The position numbers were made by a program, and so were the translations under genes. Positions 23,690 to 31,694 of a stretch of 64,000 bases of DNA are shown one piece after another (the stretch's first letter is position 1; each line of letters opens with the position of its first letter). Where the stretch lies: contig NC_015554.1 of the NCBI RefSeq assembly GCF_000213655.1, positions 3,286,001 to 3,350,000 of the forward strand, given 5' to 3'. Source of the DNA: Alteromonas naphthalenivorans. GTDB taxonomy: Bacteria > Pseudomonadota > Gammaproteobacteria > Enterobacterales > Alteromonadaceae. Under the pieces are notes generated by a model. The model saw only the letters and a list, made by a program, of their open reading frames with translations, had not been told where the DNA came from and did not search any database.

Positions 23690-24039
23690 CCACATTTCTC
23701 CAGGTTCGGATAATTATGATGTATAACCCTAACTTTTACTGGTTTTATCACGTTAGGATCGCCCATCATATGGCTTGTCATGAAGTTAACTCTAAGGCAC
23801 TTTTGTGCCCATTCGAGAATTCACTAAAGTTTCGTCAAATTTCGACCGCAAATGATAAAAGAAAAGCCCTTATAAACACAAGGTTTTACTGGTATTTAAG
23901 CAATAAATTAATCTGAGGCCACTGTTAAGAATTAGTGAGTGATTGGAATAAAATCAAGAATTTGACCGAAATTCGGTCAAATCCCTTTGTTATATTAAAA
24001 CATTGTTATAAACCTTCGACCCAGTAGTGCGAAGATATT
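23690..24039. promoter_or_regulatory. Intergenic region upstream of petA
   Basis: A 350-bp region without a convincing gene. It must hold the petABC promoter (minus strand). It also contains a GGCAC-TTTT-GTGCC hairpin (23796-23809) and, near the far end, a 23-bp near-perfect palindrome (23960-23982). This is one boundary of the accessory uptake module. Confidence 0.4.
23960..23982 (-). terminator. Palindrome, probable terminator after the M20 gene
   Basis: ATTTGACCGAA (23960-23970) pairs exactly with TTCGGTCAAAT (23972-23982) around one central base. It lies about 58 bp after the M20 amidohydrolase stop. On the minus strand it is followed by TCTTGATTTTATT, a moderate terminator tail. Its near-zero spacing also fits a dimeric regulator site. 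Confidence 0.5.
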
Positions 24040-25563
24040 CTACTTACGATAATCGAGTGCTGGTGCTCTCTGCCCTAGCATGGATTCATAGTTCAGCGTA
24101 CTTTTTCGTAGCTGAAACTCTTGCTTCGCTTTACTAATATTTTCAGGTTCAGAGAAAAGGGATATAGCGGTTTGCGTGATGACCTCACTGGCCAAGTACA
24201 TACCTTTGTAACCAATGTCAGTACCACTCATTGCTGACGCCTGCCAAGTGTGAGGAGGAGTACCTTTTACCCAGGTGGTACTAGATAGCCCCACGGTAGG
24301 TACTTGCCAACTCACATCACCTACATCAGTTGATGCCGACCAAACAGTAATCTTTTCATCGAAGGGCTCTGGTGTGCTGTGAGCATTGTGACTAAAGGTC
24401 TGCTCGCGGGTGCTACTTATTTCGCTAGCAAACTGCTGCTCACTTTTGGTCAAAATAATCGGCGGTGCGGCGTCAATATGCTTGTGCATTAATTTTGATA
24501 AGGTCACATTAGGTAATACATTCCACACTCCACCTGTGACTTCCCAATCAACACGGGTTTCAGTGCCAAGTGCTGCACCCTTCGCCGCTTTTTCCAATCT
24601 ATCCCATAATGATAACACGACAGCAGGCTGTGCTGAGCGGACGTAATAATACACTTCGGCGAAATCCGGCACCACGTTCGGCGCCGTTCCGCCATCGGTG
24701 ATCACATAATGAATTCGCGTGCCATCCGGCACATGCTCACGCATTAAATTTACCATCATGTTCATGGCTTCTACGCCATCTAATGCCGAGCGCCCTTTGT
24801 CTGGCGCTGCGGCAGCATGCGCAGCTACACCGTAAAAACGAAACTTACCGCTCTTATTGGCCAGCGAAGATGAGGGTGAAGAAGATGTACTATCTGATGG
24901 GTGCCAGTGAAGCGCAACATCCACATTTTCAAAAACGCCTGCTTTTACCATATAGACTTTACCTGAGCCCCCTTCCTCTGCGGGTGTGCCAAAAACCTTT
25001 AGTGAACCTTGGTTTGGGTGAGTATCGAGATAATCAGCTAAGCTAAGCGCAGCGCCTATTACCCCGCCGGCAAACAAGTTGTGTCCACAAGCATGACCTG
25101 CGTGAACATGTCCGTTAGTGCTAATCGGCTGTTTGTCAGACGTGTTTAATACTCCCATGCTGGGAAGAGCATCCATTTCGGCAAGTAAGCCGATAACAGG
25201 CTTATGCTCGCCATCTTCCGTCTGGTCTGCTGGGCTGTATTGCGCAATAAATGCAGTAGGCATGCCCGCAATGCCAGCAGTAACATCAAAGCCACGTCCA
25301 ATCAGCGTTTGTTGCATTAATGCGCTGCTGTTGTGTTCTAAAAAACCTAGTTCAGGCTTTTCCCACATGGTTTTTGCAATATGCTTCATCGTGCTTTGAT
25401 GAGCAAACGTAATCGCGGCTTTAGAGTCTATAGCCGAAGCATCGGTTTGCTCAACACTTTGAGCCTTCACAGCGCCAACAACACTAATGAAGGATATGAG
25501 TATAGCGAAAGCGAGTTTATGCCAAAATGCTAAGAGTTTAGTTGTGCATAAATGCATCATCAT
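24040..25563 (-). CDS. Exported M20-family amidohydrolase, AbgB-like
   Basis: A 507-residue metallo-amidohydrolase of the M20D group, similar in layout to AbgB (p-aminobenzoyl-glutamate hydrolase subunit B). It has an N-terminal signal peptide (about residues 1-35, ending VKAQ). Metal and catalytic residues appear as Cys159 and His161 in HACGHN, Glu196-Glu197 in TPAEEGGSG, His219 in ALHWHPS and a late His in GTPPHTW. Such enzymes cleave amide bonds of N-acyl or aminoacyl conjugates; the substrate here is unknown. The start overlaps the M14 gene stop (ATGATGATG; any of three ATGs is possible), so the two are translationally coupled. Confidence 0.85.
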   Translation of the reverse strand: MMMHLCTTKLLAFWHKLAFAILISFISVVGAVKAQSVEQTDASAIDSKAAITFAHQSTMKHIAKTMWEKPELGFLEHNSSALMQQTLIGRGFDVTAGIAGMPTAFIAQYSPADQTEDGEHKPVIGLLAEMDALPSMGVLNTSDKQPISTNGHVHAGHACGHNLFAGGVIGAALSLADYLDTHPNQGSLKVFGTPAEEGGSGKVYMVKAGVFENVDVALHWHPSDSTSSSPSSSLANKSGKFRFYGVAAHAAAAPDKGRSALDGVEAMNMMVNLMREHVPDGTRIHYVITDGGTAPNVVPDFAEVYYYVRSAQPAVVLSLWDRLEKAAKGAALGTETRVDWEVTGGVWNVLPNVTLSKLMHKHIDAAPPIILTKSEQQFASEISSTREQTFSHNAHSTPEPFDEKITVWSASTDVGDVSWQVPTVGLSSTTWVKGTPPHTWQASAMSGTDIGYKGMYLASEVITQTAISLFSEPENISKAKQEFQLRKSTLNYESMLGQRAPALDYRK

Positions 25564-26756
25564 TGCTCACAACTTGTTGCTTCAGCAGTACACGCTTTAA
25601 TATAAAATGCCTCGGCAGGGGTGGCAATTAACGTATCGACAAGCGTATTGGCAGCATGCTTAGCGACGTAACGTGTTTTCTCATTGGGTTCATTATCACC
25701 GACTTCATAAGTAACGCCATGCACGTGATAAACATCAGCAAAAAACTGTTTAAAAACGCCCTTCCCTGGCGATGTGCCAGGTTTATCTACGACTTTGAAC
25801 ACGCCTCTTGTTTGCGTTTGCAACTCGGCTAACCAGTCTACAACCATGTCGCTAGGGGCAATACTTTCATCTACCGGAATGGTATAAAAAACATTGTTGT
25901 GGGTAGAGTGAAAGTCCATACCCATTACAATTTTCCCGCCGGCATCCGTGATTTTATCTAAATACGTTTTCACTGCTCTGGTCTCTGGTTGAGAGAATAC
26001 ATTCCAATCGCGGTTTAGATCTTTATGCCCAAGGCTATGTCGCCAATGTCCATTAGCTACACCATCAGGGTTTATGTTTGGCACTACCAACACATTAAAT
26101 CGTGACAAAAACGCACTGGTTTCAGACGTAGTGGTTAAGAATTGATTTAGAAAAGAGAACATAGCTACTGCGCCTGTTACTTCCGGTGGGTGTTGGCGAC
26201 CAACGAAAATAACCCACTCTGTGTTTTCTGGCTTTTCTAGAGCAAATGCAGAAAGCGTGCGGCCTTCGGTAGATTTACCAATCGTAAACGGCTTAATGCC
26301 AAAGTCTTGCTCTGCTTGTTTTAGCCAGTTTATGTAAACTAAATTTGGAATAGGACGCTGGGCTGCCACATAGAGTGGTCGTTTTGACACAGGTAAAGAT
26401 ATTGTCATTCCCTGCTCTGTGGTATCAAACGCAGTTATCTCCCAGCTTTTTTGATCGTAACTCACTTTAGGTAAATACCTTGGCGTATAACCGTCAAAGG
26501 TCAGCACTACGTCTACTTTTCCTGCTTGTTTTGACGATGAATTGCCTGCTGCGGTAACACTAAAGTAATACCAAGGACTAGGGTTTATGGGCTTATCTTC
26601 TGGTAAGAAGCTCAATACATAGGTGCCATTTTCGTCGACTTCACAGGAATCTAACTTACCGGCTTCAAAATCTGCAGAAAAAGTAACGCCTTCGAATTCA
26701 CACGCCAATGTAACAGGGGAAGCAAATGCCAGTGCAATGAAAAGTAATCGAAACAT
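25560..26756 (-). CDS. Exported M14-family zinc carboxypeptidase
   Basis: A 398-residue M14 metallopeptidase with an N-terminal signal peptide (cleavage near residue 18). A beta-rich N-terminal domain as in cytosolic-carboxypeptidase-like M14 proteins (about 20-130) precedes the catalytic domain. Zinc ligands His189 and Glu192 lie in GRQHPPE, His283 lies in DFHSTH, the substrate-binding motif NRDW is at 248-251, and the probable catalytic Glu351 is in VTYEVGDN. It should trim C-terminal residues from peptides or gamma-glutamyl chains in the periplasm. A GGAGATATC site precedes the ATG. It sits between the TonB receptor and the M20 enzyme. Confidence 0.87.
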   Translation of the reverse strand: MFRLLFIALAFASPVTLACEFEGVTFSADFEAGKLDSCEVDENGTYVLSFLPEDKPINPSPWYYFSVTAAGNSSSKQAGKVDVVLTFDGYTPRYLPKVSYDQKSWEITAFDTTEQGMTISLPVSKRPLYVAAQRPIPNLVYINWLKQAEQDFGIKPFTIGKSTEGRTLSAFALEKPENTEWVIFVGRQHPPEVTGAVAMFSFLNQFLTTTSETSAFLSRFNVLVVPNINPDGVANGHWRHSLGHKDLNRDWNVFSQPETRAVKTYLDKITDAGGKIVMGMDFHSTHNNVFYTIPVDESIAPSDMVVDWLAELQTQTRGVFKVVDKPGTSPGKGVFKQFFADVYHVHGVTYEVGDNEPNEKTRYVAKHAANTLVDTLIATPAEAFYIKACTAEATSCEQ

Positions 26757-26772
26757 GATATCTCCATGAAAT

Positions 26773-26801
26773 AAGCGCCCCCTAATGGTAGGCGCTTTTT
26801 T
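26773..26801 (-). terminator. Hairpin between the TonB receptor and the M14 gene
   Basis: AAGCGCC (26773-26779) and GGCGCTT (26791-26797) form a 7-bp stem with an 11-nt loop. The T tract (26796-26801) is on the plus strand, whereas both flanking genes run on the minus strand, where the tail is only ATTTC. It is therefore probably leaky, lowering peptidase transcription relative to the receptor. Confidence 0.45.
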
Positions 26802-26830
26802 ATGATGTAAAAGTAGGTTAAGTGTTTAAC

Positions 26831-29800
26831 TTAGAATTTATGATTAAGTGTTACGTAGGTATAACGGCCAATCGATGAATGAAGGCTACTGCTGAATCCA
26901 AAGGTTCCATCGGCAAACGGCGGTTCTTCGTTTGTCAGGTTACGCATGCCTACGGTCACTTTCGTTTTTCCGCTAAATAAGGCGTCTTCACTTAAGCGGT
27001 AACTTACGTACGCATCTAACGTTGACCAATCATCAATGACGTAAGTCACTAAATCACCTGAATCGTCGGTATAATTTAAGCTAGTGTCTTCAACATCACT
27101 AACGTAACGATATTTAAGACCGGCACGCCAAGCATCGCGAGAATAGGTTAGCGATAAATTAGCCCGCCATTCTGGGCGTTCGTTTTGACGAATAAGGTCG
27201 CCATCGCTACCAAATATGGCAACTCGCTCCCCTTCGTACAATAACGCTTCGTTTCCAGCTTCTTGCGCTGCAACCACTAGGTCTGTGATATCGTCAGACC
27301 CTTGATCGAACTTTCGTAAGTTAGCGGCACTGAGCTTAATGGAAAAATCACCTACTTCAGTTTCAAAACGGTAATCAGCACTGTAATCGATACCAGAAAT
27401 GTCTCTTGGCAATAAGTTAGTGTAGTCGTTTCGAATATATATAATTTCGTCATTTTCATCACGAACCACATTTTCATTCGCGCTACCCTGGCTACGCAAT
27501 AATGCGTCATACAAAATTTGCGTTTGGCTATTTAAAATACCCACCGTGTTCTCTTGCTTGATTTGCCACCAATCGACTGTAAGGGTTAACGCTTTGGTAG
27601 GCGTAAGTACTACACCAAACGAGTAGTTTTCACTTTCTTCGGGGCTTAAGGTATCGCTACCATTTCGAAGTTCTAGCGTACCGCGATTCGTTTGTGTCAG
27701 CGGATCGGTTCTGGTATTTGAACGGGCAACATTTACTGCTGTGGTTTGTGGTAACCCTGGCGCTTTGAAGCCCCCTGAATAAGCACCACGAATTAACGCA
27801 TTTTCATTTACCGTCCATGCAAGGGCAAATTTAGGTTTAAATACACTGCCTACATCAGAGAAATCTTCGTAACGGCCAGCCACCTGCAAATTCAAACTTT
27901 CAATAAAAGGTTTATCGGCCAGCAATGGAATAGCAAATTCCGCGTACGCAGATACCACATTGCGACTTCCGCTGGCATCAGGCGTGGGGCTACTTCCTAA
28001 TACTTGGCTAGCAATTTCAGACGAAGTGCCACCCACTAAGTCACTGAAAAACAACGTGCCGTTCAAATCATCGGTTCGTTTGTCGAAAAAGCTCTCATAG
28101 CGATATTCAACACCTGCGGCAAAACCTACATTACCGGCGGGTAAACTAAACAAATCTGGTCGAGATACTTTGGCATCAATTGAGGCAAGTTCTGTTTCTG
28201 ACTCCCGCTCAACGTCCACCATAAAACTGTCTATAACACTTTGTGATACCGGCGTATCGTCAACCGTATTTGGGTTAGTTACACTGGCGCCGCTGAAAAT
28301 ATTGTAAGCCGTGCTTTCATCGGTACTATTAACCGCTTGTTGGAACAAGGTGGTGTTAATTCGATTTGCGGTATCTATGGTATTCGCTTTTGAATACAAC
28401 ACGGCTGAGTCGAAGTCCCAATCGCCTATATAACCACGGGAGCCTGCTAATAAACGATAACTGTAGTCATCGACTTCGATATTTCGTGGGCCTGTATCAA
28501 TGGGACGATAGCGACGAACTGTTACGTCCTCACCAAAAGGGTTGTAAAATGCATCAGCAGACACCGTAAAACGCTGTGCTGTTAGATTGCCCGATTGTTC
28601 ACGAATACGTTTTGCCGTTGCCGAGTAGTAAAGGGCTTCACCGTATATCTCAACGTCGTCGTTGATTTGATGATTCACCAAGGTGTACAGGTTGAGCCTA
28701 TCGACTTCAGAGCTTAAGCTACGCTGTGAGTTCGAATCGAAGCGCATATCTCGAGGTGTTGATCCAGAAGACGCACACACATCGCCACTAACGTCTGCAA
28801 CACAATCGTTGTATGACGCTGGCTCAAGGTGAAACGTGCCTAAACTGTCTGAGGAGAATTCGCCCCATGGCGTTACCGTTGAGCGATTATCTAGCTGTGT
28901 ATCGCCAACAAAATCAGCAGGCACTTCGCTGAAGTTGCGTAAGTCAGAACTGGCGGCATAGTCCCGCTCACTCGCCATTACCATGTCACGATGATAGTAC
29001 CCACCACTAAAAGTAACGTGTGTTTTATCATTATTAAATAACCAGCCACCAGCGCCTGATAAATTGATTTGGTCGCGACCTGTACCTTGGCTACTGCCAT
29101 ATTGAGCTTGAAGCTCACCGCCGGTATATTTATCGTCTAATACATAATTCACTACACCTGATATGGCATCAGTACCGTAAATAGCCGCAGCGCCATCGCG
29201 TAACACTTCAACGCGTTTTAGCCCTTTAACTGGCAGCGTATTTGAATTCACAGTAGTAACAGGCACCAAGTTTTCGGCCTGCGTACCTGGGTGTAGCACT
29301 AATCGGCGACCGTTCAACAGTGTAAGTGTGTAGCCTGTACCTATACCTCGTAGATTTACTGAAGAGACATCGCCACGTGCATCGTTTACGCCACCAACTA
29401 CACGCTCGCTATTAAAATTTACGGCACCTTGTTGTGGTAACTCCGCTAAAATTTCCGCGCCACTGCTTAAGCCTAAACCATCAATATCTTCAGATGACAT
29501 CATGGTGACGGGCAATGCGCCAGTATCTTGCATTCCACGGATGTTTGAGCCAGTAACTTGAATACGCTCTACACTTGCTTCTTGTTTTTGAACGTCAGTA
29601 GGAGCAGAGGTAGCAGGGCGCGTACCTGATTGGCTCTCCTCTTTATTTTCAATTGGAGTAACAATGTAAGTGCTTTTAGATGTCTGCTTGTAGGTAAAGC
29701 CAGTGTCTTTAAGCAAGGTAGAAAGTGCATCCTGCACATCCATACTGCCTTCTAGCTTAGGGCTTAGTTTTTTCTTTATTCTAGCGTCTGAAAACAGAAT

Positions 29801-29956
29801 TTGAATTTCACTGTGCTGTGCCAGTGAGAGCAATGCGTTATCGAGTGTGGTGGCTTGAATTGAAATGTTTTCTATTTGCTGTGCTTTGATACTTGCACTT
29901 AGTGATAGTGCGACACACAGGGCTAACGTACTTGTTGTGGTTTTTGGCAACTTCAT
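26831..29956 (-). CDS. TonB-dependent outer-membrane receptor/transducer with STN signalling domain
   Basis: A 1041-residue receptor. It has a signal peptide (about 1-26), then an STN domain (about 30-105; LDNALLSLAQHSEIQILFS) used for signalling to a FecR-type protein, then the plug (PVTMMSSEDI, RGIGTGYTLTLLNGRR, VEVLRDGAAAIYGTDAISGVVNYV) and a 22-strand-type barrel ending with an aromatic-terminated strand (YVTLNHKF). The ATG at 29956 is preferred because AGGAG lies 6 bp upstream; a frame extension of 11 codons lacks this. An ECF-type promoter element sits 37 bp before the ATG. The large barrel and peptidase neighbours suggest peptide or conjugate uptake rather than a siderophore, but the substrate is unknown. 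Confidence 0.9.
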   Translation of the reverse strand: MKLPKTTTSTLALCVALSLSASIKAQQIENISIQATTLDNALLSLAQHSEIQILFSDARIKKKLSPKLEGSMDVQDALSTLLKDTGFTYKQTSKSTYIVTPIENKEESQSGTRPATSAPTDVQKQEASVERIQVTGSNIRGMQDTGALPVTMMSSEDIDGLGLSSGAEILAELPQQGAVNFNSERVVGGVNDARGDVSSVNLRGIGTGYTLTLLNGRRLVLHPGTQAENLVPVTTVNSNTLPVKGLKRVEVLRDGAAAIYGTDAISGVVNYVLDDKYTGGELQAQYGSSQGTGRDQINLSGAGGWLFNNDKTHVTFSGGYYHRDMVMASERDYAASSDLRNFSEVPADFVGDTQLDNRSTVTPWGEFSSDSLGTFHLEPASYNDCVADVSGDVCASSGSTPRDMRFDSNSQRSLSSEVDRLNLYTLVNHQINDDVEIYGEALYYSATAKRIREQSGNLTAQRFTVSADAFYNPFGEDVTVRRYRPIDTGPRNIEVDDYSYRLLAGSRGYIGDWDFDSAVLYSKANTIDTANRINTTLFQQAVNSTDESTAYNIFSGASVTNPNTVDDTPVSQSVIDSFMVDVERESETELASIDAKVSRPDLFSLPAGNVGFAAGVEYRYESFFDKRTDDLNGTLFFSDLVGGTSSEIASQVLGSSPTPDASGSRNVVSAYAEFAIPLLADKPFIESLNLQVAGRYEDFSDVGSVFKPKFALAWTVNENALIRGAYSGGFKAPGLPQTTAVNVARSNTRTDPLTQTNRGTLELRNGSDTLSPEESENYSFGVVLTPTKALTLTVDWWQIKQENTVGILNSQTQILYDALLRSQGSANENVVRDENDEIIYIRNDYTNLLPRDISGIDYSADYRFETEVGDFSIKLSAANLRKFDQGSDDITDLVVAAQEAGNEALLYEGERVAIFGSDGDLIRQNERPEWRANLSLTYSRDAWRAGLKYRYVSDVEDTSLNYTDDSGDLVTYVIDDWSTLDAYVSYRLSEDALFSGKTKVTVGMRNLTNEEPPFADGTFGFSSSLHSSIGRYTYVTLNHKF

Positions 29957-29992
29957 GGCTGCTCCTATAGTATTTTGTTGTGTTCCCATAAG

Positions 29993-30021
29993 CTAATACG
30001 CAGCCAAAAACAAAACCCTCC
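29993..30021 (-). promoter_or_regulatory. Putative ECF sigma promoter of the TonB receptor gene
   Basis: On the minus strand: GGAGGG (30016-30021), 12 bp, CTGCGTATTAG (29993-30003). The same two blocks with the same spacing occur before the sigma-factor gene (31607-31635), while the 12-bp spacers differ. It begins 2 bp after the fecR-like stop codon and ends 37 bp before the receptor ATG. The -35-like GGAG core fits ECF promoters in general. Confidence 0.75.
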
Positions 30022-30022
30022 G

Positions 30023-31012
30023 CTATTTTTTCACTAATTTAACCTTTTCATTCTCTTTTTTTATTTCTACAGGCAAGGTCGCTTCAAGTGCCGTTAAAAT
30101 AGCATCACCATCTGAAAGTTTAAAAACGCCACTAATACGTAAATCAGCAATCTCTTGGCTAATCACTATTTTTTTGCTTCTATAGCGGTTAAAACTGGTA
30201 ATCACTTTCTCTAGCCGTTCTTCATCAAAACGTAAGTAACCGGTACGCCAACTTTGCGCTTTTACTACACTGTCCACACTTTGTTTTGCGATAAGTGCAC
30301 TGGTATCATTGAACGATGCGACTGCGCCGGCTTCCAATAACACTTGAGTATCATCTTTCGCTGGTTTGTCGGTGTTCGGCTCTGCCTTTTCTTCTATGGC
30401 AACGGTACCTTCTTCTACTGCGATATCAAACCCAGCCTGTGACAGCTTAATATTAAACTTCGTTCCTACGACTCTCACCGTCTTGTTTGCGGTATGAATT
30501 AGGAATGGACGAGAGCGATCTTTAGCAATATCAAAAAATGCCTCACCTTGTTCTAGCCAGAGCTCTCTGTGCGCTTCACTAAACTTTATATTAATGCGGG
30601 TATCTGTATTTAACGTAATGGTAGAGCCATCTGATAATCCAACATTGCTCACCTCGCCAATGGCAGTAGAGTAATTATTGGCAAGCTCACTGTTATCAAT
30701 ACTTTGGTCAGGCGCATTGTGATGCGTGATGAGTAAAAAGCAGAACGATGCAACAACAATAGATGCCGCTAGATAGCGCATTCGATAGAAGCGTTTTTCC
30801 AGCTTTTGCCGCCAGCCTATATGAGGCGCAATTTGAGCTGAAGTTTCCCACAAATAAAGCGCATCGTTAAAAGCAGCTTGATGTGCGCCTTTCGCATCGC
30901 ACCACTCAAGGATCTCACTTTCTTCTTTAGCTGTCAGTTCACCAGAGTAAAGACGCACAACGTAATCACTTGCACGTTTATTAATTGAATGCTGGTTCAA
31001 AGCCGTAGCCAT
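30023..31012 (-). CDS. FecR-family anti-sigma/signal transduction protein
   Basis: A 329-residue inner-membrane regulator. The cytosolic N-terminal part (about 1-70) has the DUF4880-like pattern (ASDYVVRLYSGELTAKEESEILEW). One membrane helix follows (about 79-96), then a periplasmic FecR domain (FDIAKDRSRPFLIHTANKTV in parts; VRVVGTKFNIK) and an STN-like C-terminal part (LRISGVFKLSDGDAILTAL). It should bind the adjacent ECF sigma factor and respond to the receptor's STN domain. It overlaps the sigma gene by 1 bp. Confidence 0.92.
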   Translation of the reverse strand: MATALNQHSINKRASDYVVRLYSGELTAKEESEILEWCDAKGAHQAAFNDALYLWETSAQIAPHIGWRQKLEKRFYRMRYLAASIVVASFCFLLITHHNAPDQSIDNSELANNYSTAIGEVSNVGLSDGSTITLNTDTRINIKFSEAHRELWLEQGEAFFDIAKDRSRPFLIHTANKTVRVVGTKFNIKLSQAGFDIAVEEGTVAIEEKAEPNTDKPAKDDTQVLLEAGAVASFNDTSALIAKQSVDSVVKAQSWRTGYLRFDEERLEKVITSFNRYRSKKIVISQEIADLRISGVFKLSDGDAILTALEATLPVEIKKENEKVKLVKK

Positions 31013-31575
31013 TAATCTTGCACCTTATTTCGAATAGCCATCAGTGCGGCTGAAATATATTTTTCTACTGTACTCACAGAAACGCCTAATATGTCGCTGA
31101 TTTCCCGGTAAGCCTTACCTTCAACGCGGCAAAGCACAAATGCAGATTTGTGATGAGGGTTAATATTTTCAAGCACGTTTTCAATTTCAATTAGCTTCTC
31201 AGCAATCCCTGCACACTTTTCCGGCTCATTGTTCCACGTAGAATATAGAGTATCAGAAAATGGTTCGTGAGCATCATGAGCGCGCACTTTTGCCCGCCGT
31301 TCCCTATCTATAATTAAATTAGTCACAACGGTAAACAAAAAGCTTCGAAACGTATCTTGTCGCGCTTCAACCTTCTGTGCCAATTCATCAAGTGAAAAGA
31401 GTTTGGCGTACATTTCTTGAAGTATGTCTTCTACCTCAGGGGCATTCGCACGGGCTCGAACACGAATAAACCGACGAAGCGCGGGCTCATGTTCAGAAAT
31501 GAGTTCGTAAAGCATAGCATTGTCGCTTTGAGACTGCGCTATAGCTGATTGAGTATTTAAATAAACGACTTTCAC
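31012..31575 (-). CDS. FecI-like ECF RNA polymerase sigma factor
   Basis: A 187-residue sigma-70-family ECF factor. Region 2 contains the core-binding and -10-binding segment (VEDILQEMYAKLF; FRSFLFTVVTNLIIDRERR), and region 4 contains HKSAFVLCRVEGKAYREISDILGVSVSTVEKYI (about 142-174, quoted in parts) with its helix-turn-helix. No region 3 is present. It is the first gene of the sigma/anti-sigma pair, and the receptor gene follows. The same promoter-like element found before the receptor also precedes this gene, suggesting autoregulation, which differs from E. coli FecI. Confidence 0.93.
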   Translation of the reverse strand: MKVVYLNTQSAIAQSQSDNAMLYELISEHEPALRRFIRVRARANAPEVEDILQEMYAKLFSLDELAQKVEARQDTFRSFLFTVVTNLIIDRERRAKVRAHDAHEPFSDTLYSTWNNEPEKCAGIAEKLIEIENVLENINPHHKSAFVLCRVEGKAYREISDILGVSVSTVEKYISAALMAIRNKVQD

Positions 31576-31606
31576 ACTAATTCTTCATTCATTTCTGGCT
31601 TAACTA

Positions 31607-31635
31607 CTAATACGCAGTAGAGCATAACCCCCTCC
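31607..31635 (-). promoter_or_regulatory. Putative autoregulatory ECF sigma promoter
   Basis: On the minus strand: GGAGGG (31630-31635), 12 bp, CTGCGTATTAG (31607-31617). It ends 32 bp before the sigma-factor ATG. It is the exact partner of the element at 29993-30021. Confidence 0.75.
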
Positions 31636-31666
31636 ACTATTATTCATTTTATTAGCGCCAGAAAAT

Positions 31667-31694
31667 AAAAAACCCGGCATGAGCCGGGTTTTTT
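31667..31694 (-). terminator. Terminator after rplM-rpsI
   Basis: The stem CCCGGC/GCCGGG (31673-31678 and 31683-31688) with an ATGA loop is flanked by six A on one side and six T on the other. It is placed 23 bp after the rpsI stop, so it serves that operon on the minus strand. Confidence 0.93.

What the first reader, a model, noticed from the sequence alone, without database searches (positions are those of the whole stretch)
29993..31635. Identical two-block ECF promoter before the sigma-factor gene and the TonB receptor gene
On the minus strand GGAGGG-N12-CTGCGTATTAG occurs at 30021-29993 and at 31635-31607. Both blocks and the spacing are identical while the 12-bp spacers differ. The elements end 37 and 32 bp before the two start codons. 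This is what a promoter pair read by one ECF sigma factor should look like. It implies that the FecI-like factor switches on both its own operon and the receptor, a positive loop; E. coli FecI is not known to autoregulate in this way. No third copy was noticed before the M14 gene.
Basis: partly seen in the sequence, partly recalled or inferred. Interest (0 to 1): 0.72.

Follow-up and report, generated by a model that had tools for sequence, protein, structure and literature searches.

The report
Self-activating peptide-receptor sigma factor operon
A marine bacterium carries a small gene cassette whose sigma factor appears to switch on both its own gene and the gene of the outer-membrane receptor that senses its signal; the same paired switch is kept in distant relatives, which is of interest because several studied relatives of this sigma-factor type do not switch themselves on.

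Summary
GGAGGG-N12-CTGCGTATTAG occurs twice in the window and nowhere else in the 4.97-Mb genome. The boxes are better read as -35 GGAGG, 16-nt spacer, -10 CGTATT. Sigma-factor relatives were found in 23 other genomes of the order. In the 21 loci compared in detail (36-95% identity to the window's sigma factor), (G/T)GAGG-N16-CGTA stands before both sigma and receptor genes: 42 of 42, against 0.0005-0.0008 per shuffled region. The other three genomes agree. Spacers and flanks are not conserved. Two loci have a third copy before a detached M20 peptidase gene. None of 28 other FecR loci sampled from the genus shows such a pair; three alphaproteobacterial relatives lack it. No Fur-box-like match exceeds chance. 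So sigma-FecR-STN receptor-M14-M20 is most likely a FecI/FecR/FecA-like signalling cassette for peptides or acyl-amino acids that its own sigma factor activates. Passages read report no autoregulation for FecI, HasI, HemI, AsbI and VreI, though the HemI authors call that atypical. New variant of a known kind; no transcript was measured.

The parts
31607..31635 (-). Promoter of the sigma-FecR genes: -35 GGAGG 31635-31631, 16-nt spacer, -10 CGTATTA 31614-31608
   Evidence: core conserved in 21 of 21 loci
29993..30021 (-). Promoter of the receptor gene: -35 GGAGG 30021-30017 (begins 2 positions after the last base of the FecR stop codon), -10 CGTATTA 30000-29994
   Evidence: core conserved in 21 of 21 loci
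31012..31575 (-). FecI-like ECF sigma factor, 187 aa, sigma regions 2 and 4, GTG start
   Evidence: Pfam PF04542, PF08281; TIGR02937
30023..31012 (-). FecR-like sigma regulator, 329 aa (DUF4880, FecR, FecR_C domains)
26831..29956 (-). TonB-dependent receptor with N-terminal STN signalling domain, 1041 aa
   Evidence: PF07660, PF07715, PF00593
25560..26756 (-). M14 carboxypeptidase; N-terminus looks like a signal peptide (by eye)
   Evidence: PF00246; sequence matches to solved bacterial M14 peptidases 3l2n and 4a37
24040..25563 (-). M20 amidohydrolase, AbgB-like, overlaps the M14 gene by 4 nt; hydrophobic N-terminus (by eye)
   Evidence: PF01546, TIGR01891; 37% identical to E. coli AbgB over 457 columns
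31667..31694 (-). Intrinsic-terminator-like hairpin after rpsI, ends 31 nt before the -35 of the sigma promoter
23956..23986 (-). Intrinsic-terminator-like hairpin after the M20 gene, likely operon end

Best explanation
The two elements are -35/-10 promoters recognised by the ECF sigma factor encoded at 31575-31012. An extracellular ligand, probably a peptide or N-acyl amino acid, binds the STN-bearing TonB receptor; the receptor signals through FecR; the activated sigma factor then directs RNA polymerase to its own promoter (sigma-FecR, perhaps reading on into the rest) and to the receptor promoter (receptor-M14-M20). The result is a self-contained positive loop with, as a rule, two target sites per genome. 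Shown here: the sites, their rarity in the genome, their conservation at both places, and the domain make-up. Inferred: recognition by this sigma factor, the positive sign, the ligand class, co-transcription, and how basal expression arises (no sigma-70-like site or Fur box was found just before it; leakage past the rpsI terminator is possible in this genome).
For: Exact pair, only two in the genome. Core (G/T)GAGG-N16-CGTA before sigma and receptor genes in 21 of 21 loci each; GAGG and CGTA invariant in 42 of 42 copies; shuffle rates 0.0008 and 0.0005 per 160-nt region. Box identity between the two promoters of a locus 0.91-0.94 on average, spacer 0.38, flanks 0.29-0.37. In 60 genomes, 10 of 11 exact GGAGG-N14-TGCGTATTA sites are at this locus; 17 of 19 and 18 of 21 sites in two further sets of genomes. 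Third copies before M20 genes in L085 and L086. Pair kept in L089 although the receptor is only 25% identical and the enzymes differ. Receptor homologues in three genomes without this sigma factor lack the element. The CGT of the -10 fits ECF promoters in general (PMC8103513, passages); that a 16-nt spacing does so too is recalled.
Against: No transcript start, binding or mutant data. The -35 GGAGG departs from the AAC box given as an ECF hallmark. One of 10 further clade loci (L069) did not stand out in the pairwise test, though its core motif is present. Strict patterns miss 5 of 40 true sites, so the genome-wide counts are of strict matches only. With one mismatch allowed, sites elsewhere (34) are about as many as control matches (37). 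Loci of close species are not independent. Most FecI-like systems in the passages read are reported as not autoregulated.
Confidence: 0.9

Rival explanations
1. The elements are binding sites of a separate DNA-binding regulator acting on both genes, and ordinary promoters lie nearby.
For: Two blocks at a constant distance could suit a dimeric regulator; both sites are conserved together.
Against: By eye the blocks are neither inverted nor direct repeats of each other; the CGT block fits ECF promoters; no sigma-70-like site is listed just upstream of either gene on that strand; strict sites occur almost only with this sigma gene. ORF maps around the cassette differ between genera, but neighbours outside the cassette were not annotated, so a linked regulator was not excluded gene by gene.
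Confidence: 0.05
2. The elements are ECF promoters read by another ECF sigma factor of the cell, so there is no direct positive loop.
For: Alteromonas genomes hold other sigma-like candidates (first-look candidates) and up to six FecR loci.
Against: In the 60 genomes, exact sites lie at this locus in 5 of the 6 sigma-bearing genomes (the sixth, G015, has a variant -10), and only one lies in a genome without this sigma factor, although almost all congeners have other FecR loci (58 of 59 genomes); the second FecR locus of this genome shows no such motif.
Confidence: 0.06
3. The similarity is a recent duplication of one promoter region inside the locus rather than a selected pair.
For: In this genome both blocks are identical.
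Against: Spacers and flanks are dissimilar (0.29-0.38), and the pair persists down to 36% sigma identity.
Confidence: 0.01

Closest known systems
E. coli FecI-FecR-FecA ferric citrate cell-surface signalling
   Same: ECF sigma factor, FecR-type regulator, receptor with N-terminal signalling domain, sigma-dependent promoter before the receptor gene
   Different: fecIR is transcribed by sigma-70, Fur-regulated and not autoregulated (PMC9249621, passages); here the sigma gene has the same promoter as the receptor gene, no Fur-box-like match exceeds chance, and the linked genes are peptidases
Stenotrophomonas HemI, Aeromonas AsbI, Pseudomonas VreI, Serratia HasI
   Same: FecI-like or cell-surface-signalling sigma factors linked to TonB-dependent receptors
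   Different: Each reported as not autoregulated (PMC12772443; PMC10253897; PMC4971064; PMC9249621; passages only). HemI is a weak comparison: its receptor is truncated, and its authors call the lack of autoregulation atypical
Autoregulated ECF sigma factors in general
   Same: Sigma factor reads its own promoter; CGT in the -10
   Different: Positive autoregulation is given as a hallmark of ECF sigma factors, FecI-like systems being named among the exceptions; the same review cites about 55% of known ECFs as autoregulated (PMC8103513, passages)
E. coli AbgB (p-aminobenzoyl-glutamate hydrolase subunit B)
   Same: 37% identity over 457 columns with the M20 protein
   Different: Lies with an M14 gene and a TonB receptor gene rather than with abgA and abgT; longer hydrophobic N-terminus (by eye)

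Membership tests
FecI/FecR/FecA-type cell-surface signalling | ECF sigma factor with regions 2 and 4 | tested here: met
FecI/FecR/FecA-type cell-surface signalling | FecR-domain regulator encoded directly after the sigma gene | tested here: met
   genes overlap by one base; FecR homologue next to sigma in 20 of 20 other loci compared
FecI/FecR/FecA-type cell-surface signalling | TonB-dependent receptor with N-terminal STN domain | tested here: met
   window protein above the curated cut-off; 9 of 9 other receptor N-termini given (of 20 loci) match at E<=0.001, 3 of these (L078, L089, L091) below the curated cut-off
FecI/FecR/FecA-type cell-surface signalling | Sigma-dependent promoter before the receptor gene | tested here: inconclusive
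   strongly indicated by conservation; no experiment
FecI/FecR/FecA-type cell-surface signalling | Ligand-dependent signalling through receptor and FecR | not testable with these tools
   needs cells
E. coli Fec system proper | Sigma gene Fur-regulated and not autoregulated | tested here: not met
   by sequence only: no Fur-box match above shuffles, consensus recalled; target-type promoter before the sigma gene
E. coli Fec system proper | NCBIfam equivalog scores for FecI and FecR | tested here: not met
   NF041727 58.4 of 260 bits, NF007296 141.2 of 385 bits
Positively autoregulated ECF sigma factors | Own promoter matches the target promoter | tested here: met
Positively autoregulated ECF sigma factors | Sigma factor raises its own transcription | not testable with these tools
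   needs deletion or reporter assay

The most novel reading that the evidence does not exclude
A clade of FecI-like signalling cassettes of Alteromonadales and neighbours is wired as a portable, iron-independent, self-amplifying switch for peptide feeding: the sigma factor's whole regulon is the cassette (two sites, occasionally a third before a detached peptidase gene), and the same promoter was kept while receptor and peptidases were exchanged. Such a loop could give all-or-none, bistable commitment of single cells to one peptide source.
Probability: 0.55. Interest if true: 0.62.

Novelty: new variant of a known kind. Interest (0 to 1): 0.5.

Why it matters
It predicts, base by base, a promoter pair for a FecI-like group and a wiring (autoregulation with no visible Fur site) that the FecI-like systems in the passages read do not have. 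It makes testable whether cell-surface signalling outside iron uptake uses positive feedback, and would give a compact promoter (GGAGG-N16-CGTATT) with very few strict sites in each genome examined.

Tried and rejected
A regulon beyond the cassette. With one mismatch to GGAGG-N14-TGCGTATTA, 60 genomes give 44 sites, 10 at this locus and 34 elsewhere, against 37 control matches; strict sites elsewhere are 2 of 19 (controls 5) and 2 of 21 plus one M20 site (controls 4). The one exact site in a genome without the sigma factor (G031, L022) lies between a CBS-domain-like ORF upstream and a sulfotransferase-like ORF about 350 nt downstream (both named by eye) and is taken as chance.

Fur control: mean best match to a recalled 19-mer 10.3 and 10.8 of 19, shuffles 10.8 and 11.0. 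RNA elements: three Rfam matches below the gathering score, all around the rpsI terminator. Alphaproteobacterial relatives L015-L017 (31-35% identity) show neither this motif nor another detectable shared pair.

A first comparison with other FecR loci placed the receptor start wrongly in 12 of 30 (gap above 400 nt); it was redone with a fixed region from 60 nt before to 200 nt after the FecR end, and only that is counted. It sees spacings of 15-17 only, takes the sigma gene by position and size, and would miss promoters farther away. L137 stood out in the first version (0 of 100 shuffles) but not in the second (34 of 300).

In 568 kb (both strands) of the 21 loci, four core matches lie elsewhere than at the two promoters; my equal-base estimate is about four by chance. 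Two of the four are the M20 sites, which count only because of their place before those genes. A profile search of 369 genomes of the class found only this genome at E<=1e-35. The protein search found relatives labelled Sphingomonadales and Alphaproteobacteria (P0075, P0094) whose DNA was not examined.

Full report
What is there. On the minus strand, GGAGGG-N12-CTGCGTATTAG occurs at 31635-31607 and 30021-29993: twice in the window, 0 in 100 shuffles, and exactly twice in the 4,972,148-base genome, with no match to the pattern read backwards. The first stands 32 positions before the GTG of an ECF sigma-factor gene, the second 37 positions before the ATG of a TonB-dependent receptor gene. The genes run sigma (regions 2 and 4), FecR-like regulator, receptor with an N-terminal STN domain, M14 carboxypeptidase, M20 amidohydrolase. 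A terminator-like hairpin after rpsI ends 31 nt before the first -35, another follows the M20 gene, and no sigma-70-like site is listed just before the sigma or the receptor gene on that strand.

Is it conserved? The sigma protein was sought in 98 relatives (8 with a match at E<=1e-20), 295 genomes of the family (19 at E<=1e-25) and 394 of the order (5 at E<=1e-25). The counts include this genome and the sets overlap; together they give 24 genomes, so the gene is rare and patchy. In the 23 family genomes a match to GGAGG-N14-TGCGTAT with at most two changes (three were allowed) lies before the sigma gene and another before the receptor gene, 23 of 23. For 21 loci stretches of about 13.5 kb were compared: this one, 19 others of the family, and one of another family, which its contig length suggests is Gallaecimonas mangrovi. 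I picked the sites from the matches. The core (G/T)GAGG-N16-CGTA is then exact at both places in 21 of 21, and GAGG and CGTA do not vary in 42 copies; shuffled 160-nt regions contain the core at rates of 0.0008 and 0.0005. The three genomes outside that set (G016, G023, G037) were seen. Sigma identities to the window's protein run from 36 to 95%. Between the two promoters of a locus the boxes are 91-94% identical on average, the spacer 38%, upstream 37%, downstream 29%. This is what two separately constrained promoters of one sigma factor look like, and the N16 spacing marks the boxes as -35 GGAGG and -10 CGTATT. A caution: several loci are from close species and are not independent.

Specificity. 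In 60 genomes the exact GGAGG-N14-TGCGTATTA occurs 11 times, 10 of them at this locus in five genomes. A sixth sigma-bearing genome in the set (G015) has a variant -10 and is missed. With one mismatch allowed there are 33 more sites, all elsewhere; the 34 elsewhere compare with 37 control matches, so only exact sites are informative. In eleven others, 18 of 21 matches to KGAGG-N15-GCGTATA are there, one precedes an M20 gene and two lie elsewhere; controls 4. These strict patterns miss one true site in the first set and four in the second. Among the 30 FecR loci of the genus for which DNA was returned (not all FecR matches), the 2 of this clade share a two-block word of 14 of 15 between the region before sigma and the region after FecR; the 28 others reach at most 13. 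Of 10 further clade loci, 9 reach 14 or 15 and one (L069) only 12. Shuffles reach 14 in 0 to 5 of 300 for these nine. The genome's own second FecR locus shows no such pair.

Independent hints. In L089 the receptor is 25% identical and the next genes are a DPP-IV-like S9 peptidase and a cyclophilin-type prolyl isomerase, yet the promoter pair is kept. Receptor homologues in three genomes without this sigma factor (42, 45 and 52% identical) lack the element; by eye two of them start without room for an STN domain, and the third has an STN-like N-terminus and lies beside another FecR gene.

Mechanism. The best reading is a FecI/FecR/FecA-like cell-surface signalling system that activates itself. 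The chain ligand, receptor STN, FecR, sigma is inferred from the domains and from the known family. That this sigma factor reads both promoters is inferred from conservation; the positive sign follows if it does. The ligand is guessed from the enzymes: an M14 carboxypeptidase and an M20 enzyme 37% identical to E. coli AbgB and matching Xaa-Arg dipeptidase and HmrA structures by sequence, hence peptides or N-acyl/aryl amino acids rather than iron chelates. No Fur-box match rises above shuffles. How the loop is primed is open.

Mobility. In seven genomes of the window's genus the sigma gene follows rpsI: read from gene maps for four (window, L074, L075, L092), and for G016, G023 and G037 suggested by an open frame of 134 residues at the same place. 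In 16 of 16 genomes chosen for lacking the cassette at that place (three of them carry it elsewhere), rpsI and the Rieske gene lie within about 1 kb of each other with no sigma match between. In the other 17 loci compared, no rpsI match flanks the sigma gene. It behaves like a movable cassette.

What is known. A review gives positive autoregulation as a hallmark of ECF sigma factors, with FecI-like ones among the exceptions, and cites about 55% of known ECFs as autoregulated (PMC8103513, passages). fecIR and hasI are not autoregulated (PMC9249621, passages); nor are hemI (PMC12772443), asbI (PMC10253897) or the VreI system (PMC4971064), seen as passages only. Against my novelty claim: the HemI authors call the lack of autoregulation atypical and blame a truncated receptor, so some authors expect FecIRA-like systems to be autoregulated. 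An earlier VreI paper, on the other hand, calls self-induction unusual for ECF sigma factors (PMC2729926, passage). Ten paper searches (some listings capped) listed no study that I recognised as being about this group; the one naming Alteromonas with FecI gave two siderophore papers. The library lacks most subscription papers, and the 2021 ECF re-classification, which may hold a promoter model for this group, is not held.

Verdict. Observation confirmed, interpretation supported, new variant of a known kind, experimentally untested. On re-checking I lowered interest slightly (0.52 to 0.50) because of the HemI authors' view.

Noticed in passing
L085 10565 and L086 10600, minus strand (orientation as): A third copy of the promoter core stands before a detached, oppositely oriented M20 peptidase gene, as if the promoter accompanies the enzyme gene outside the operon.
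   Followed up: partly
L089 4587-10756: The same promoter pair precedes sigma and a different receptor followed by a DPP-IV-like peptidase and a cyclophilin-type prolyl isomerase: looks like a proline-peptide uptake cassette.
   Followed up: partly
window 23956-31694: The cassette sits between rpsI and the cytochrome bc1 genes, which lie next to each other in 16 of 16 genomes checked that lack it at that place.
   Followed up: yes
window 24040-25563: The M20 enzyme is AbgB-like (37%) with a hydrophobic N-terminus, hinting at p-aminobenzoyl-glutamate-like or glutamyl substrates in the periplasm.
   Followed up: partly
L137: Another FecR locus of the genus shows a possible shared pair GTTCCG...CGTCT before sigma and after FecR; strong, weak.
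   Followed up: no
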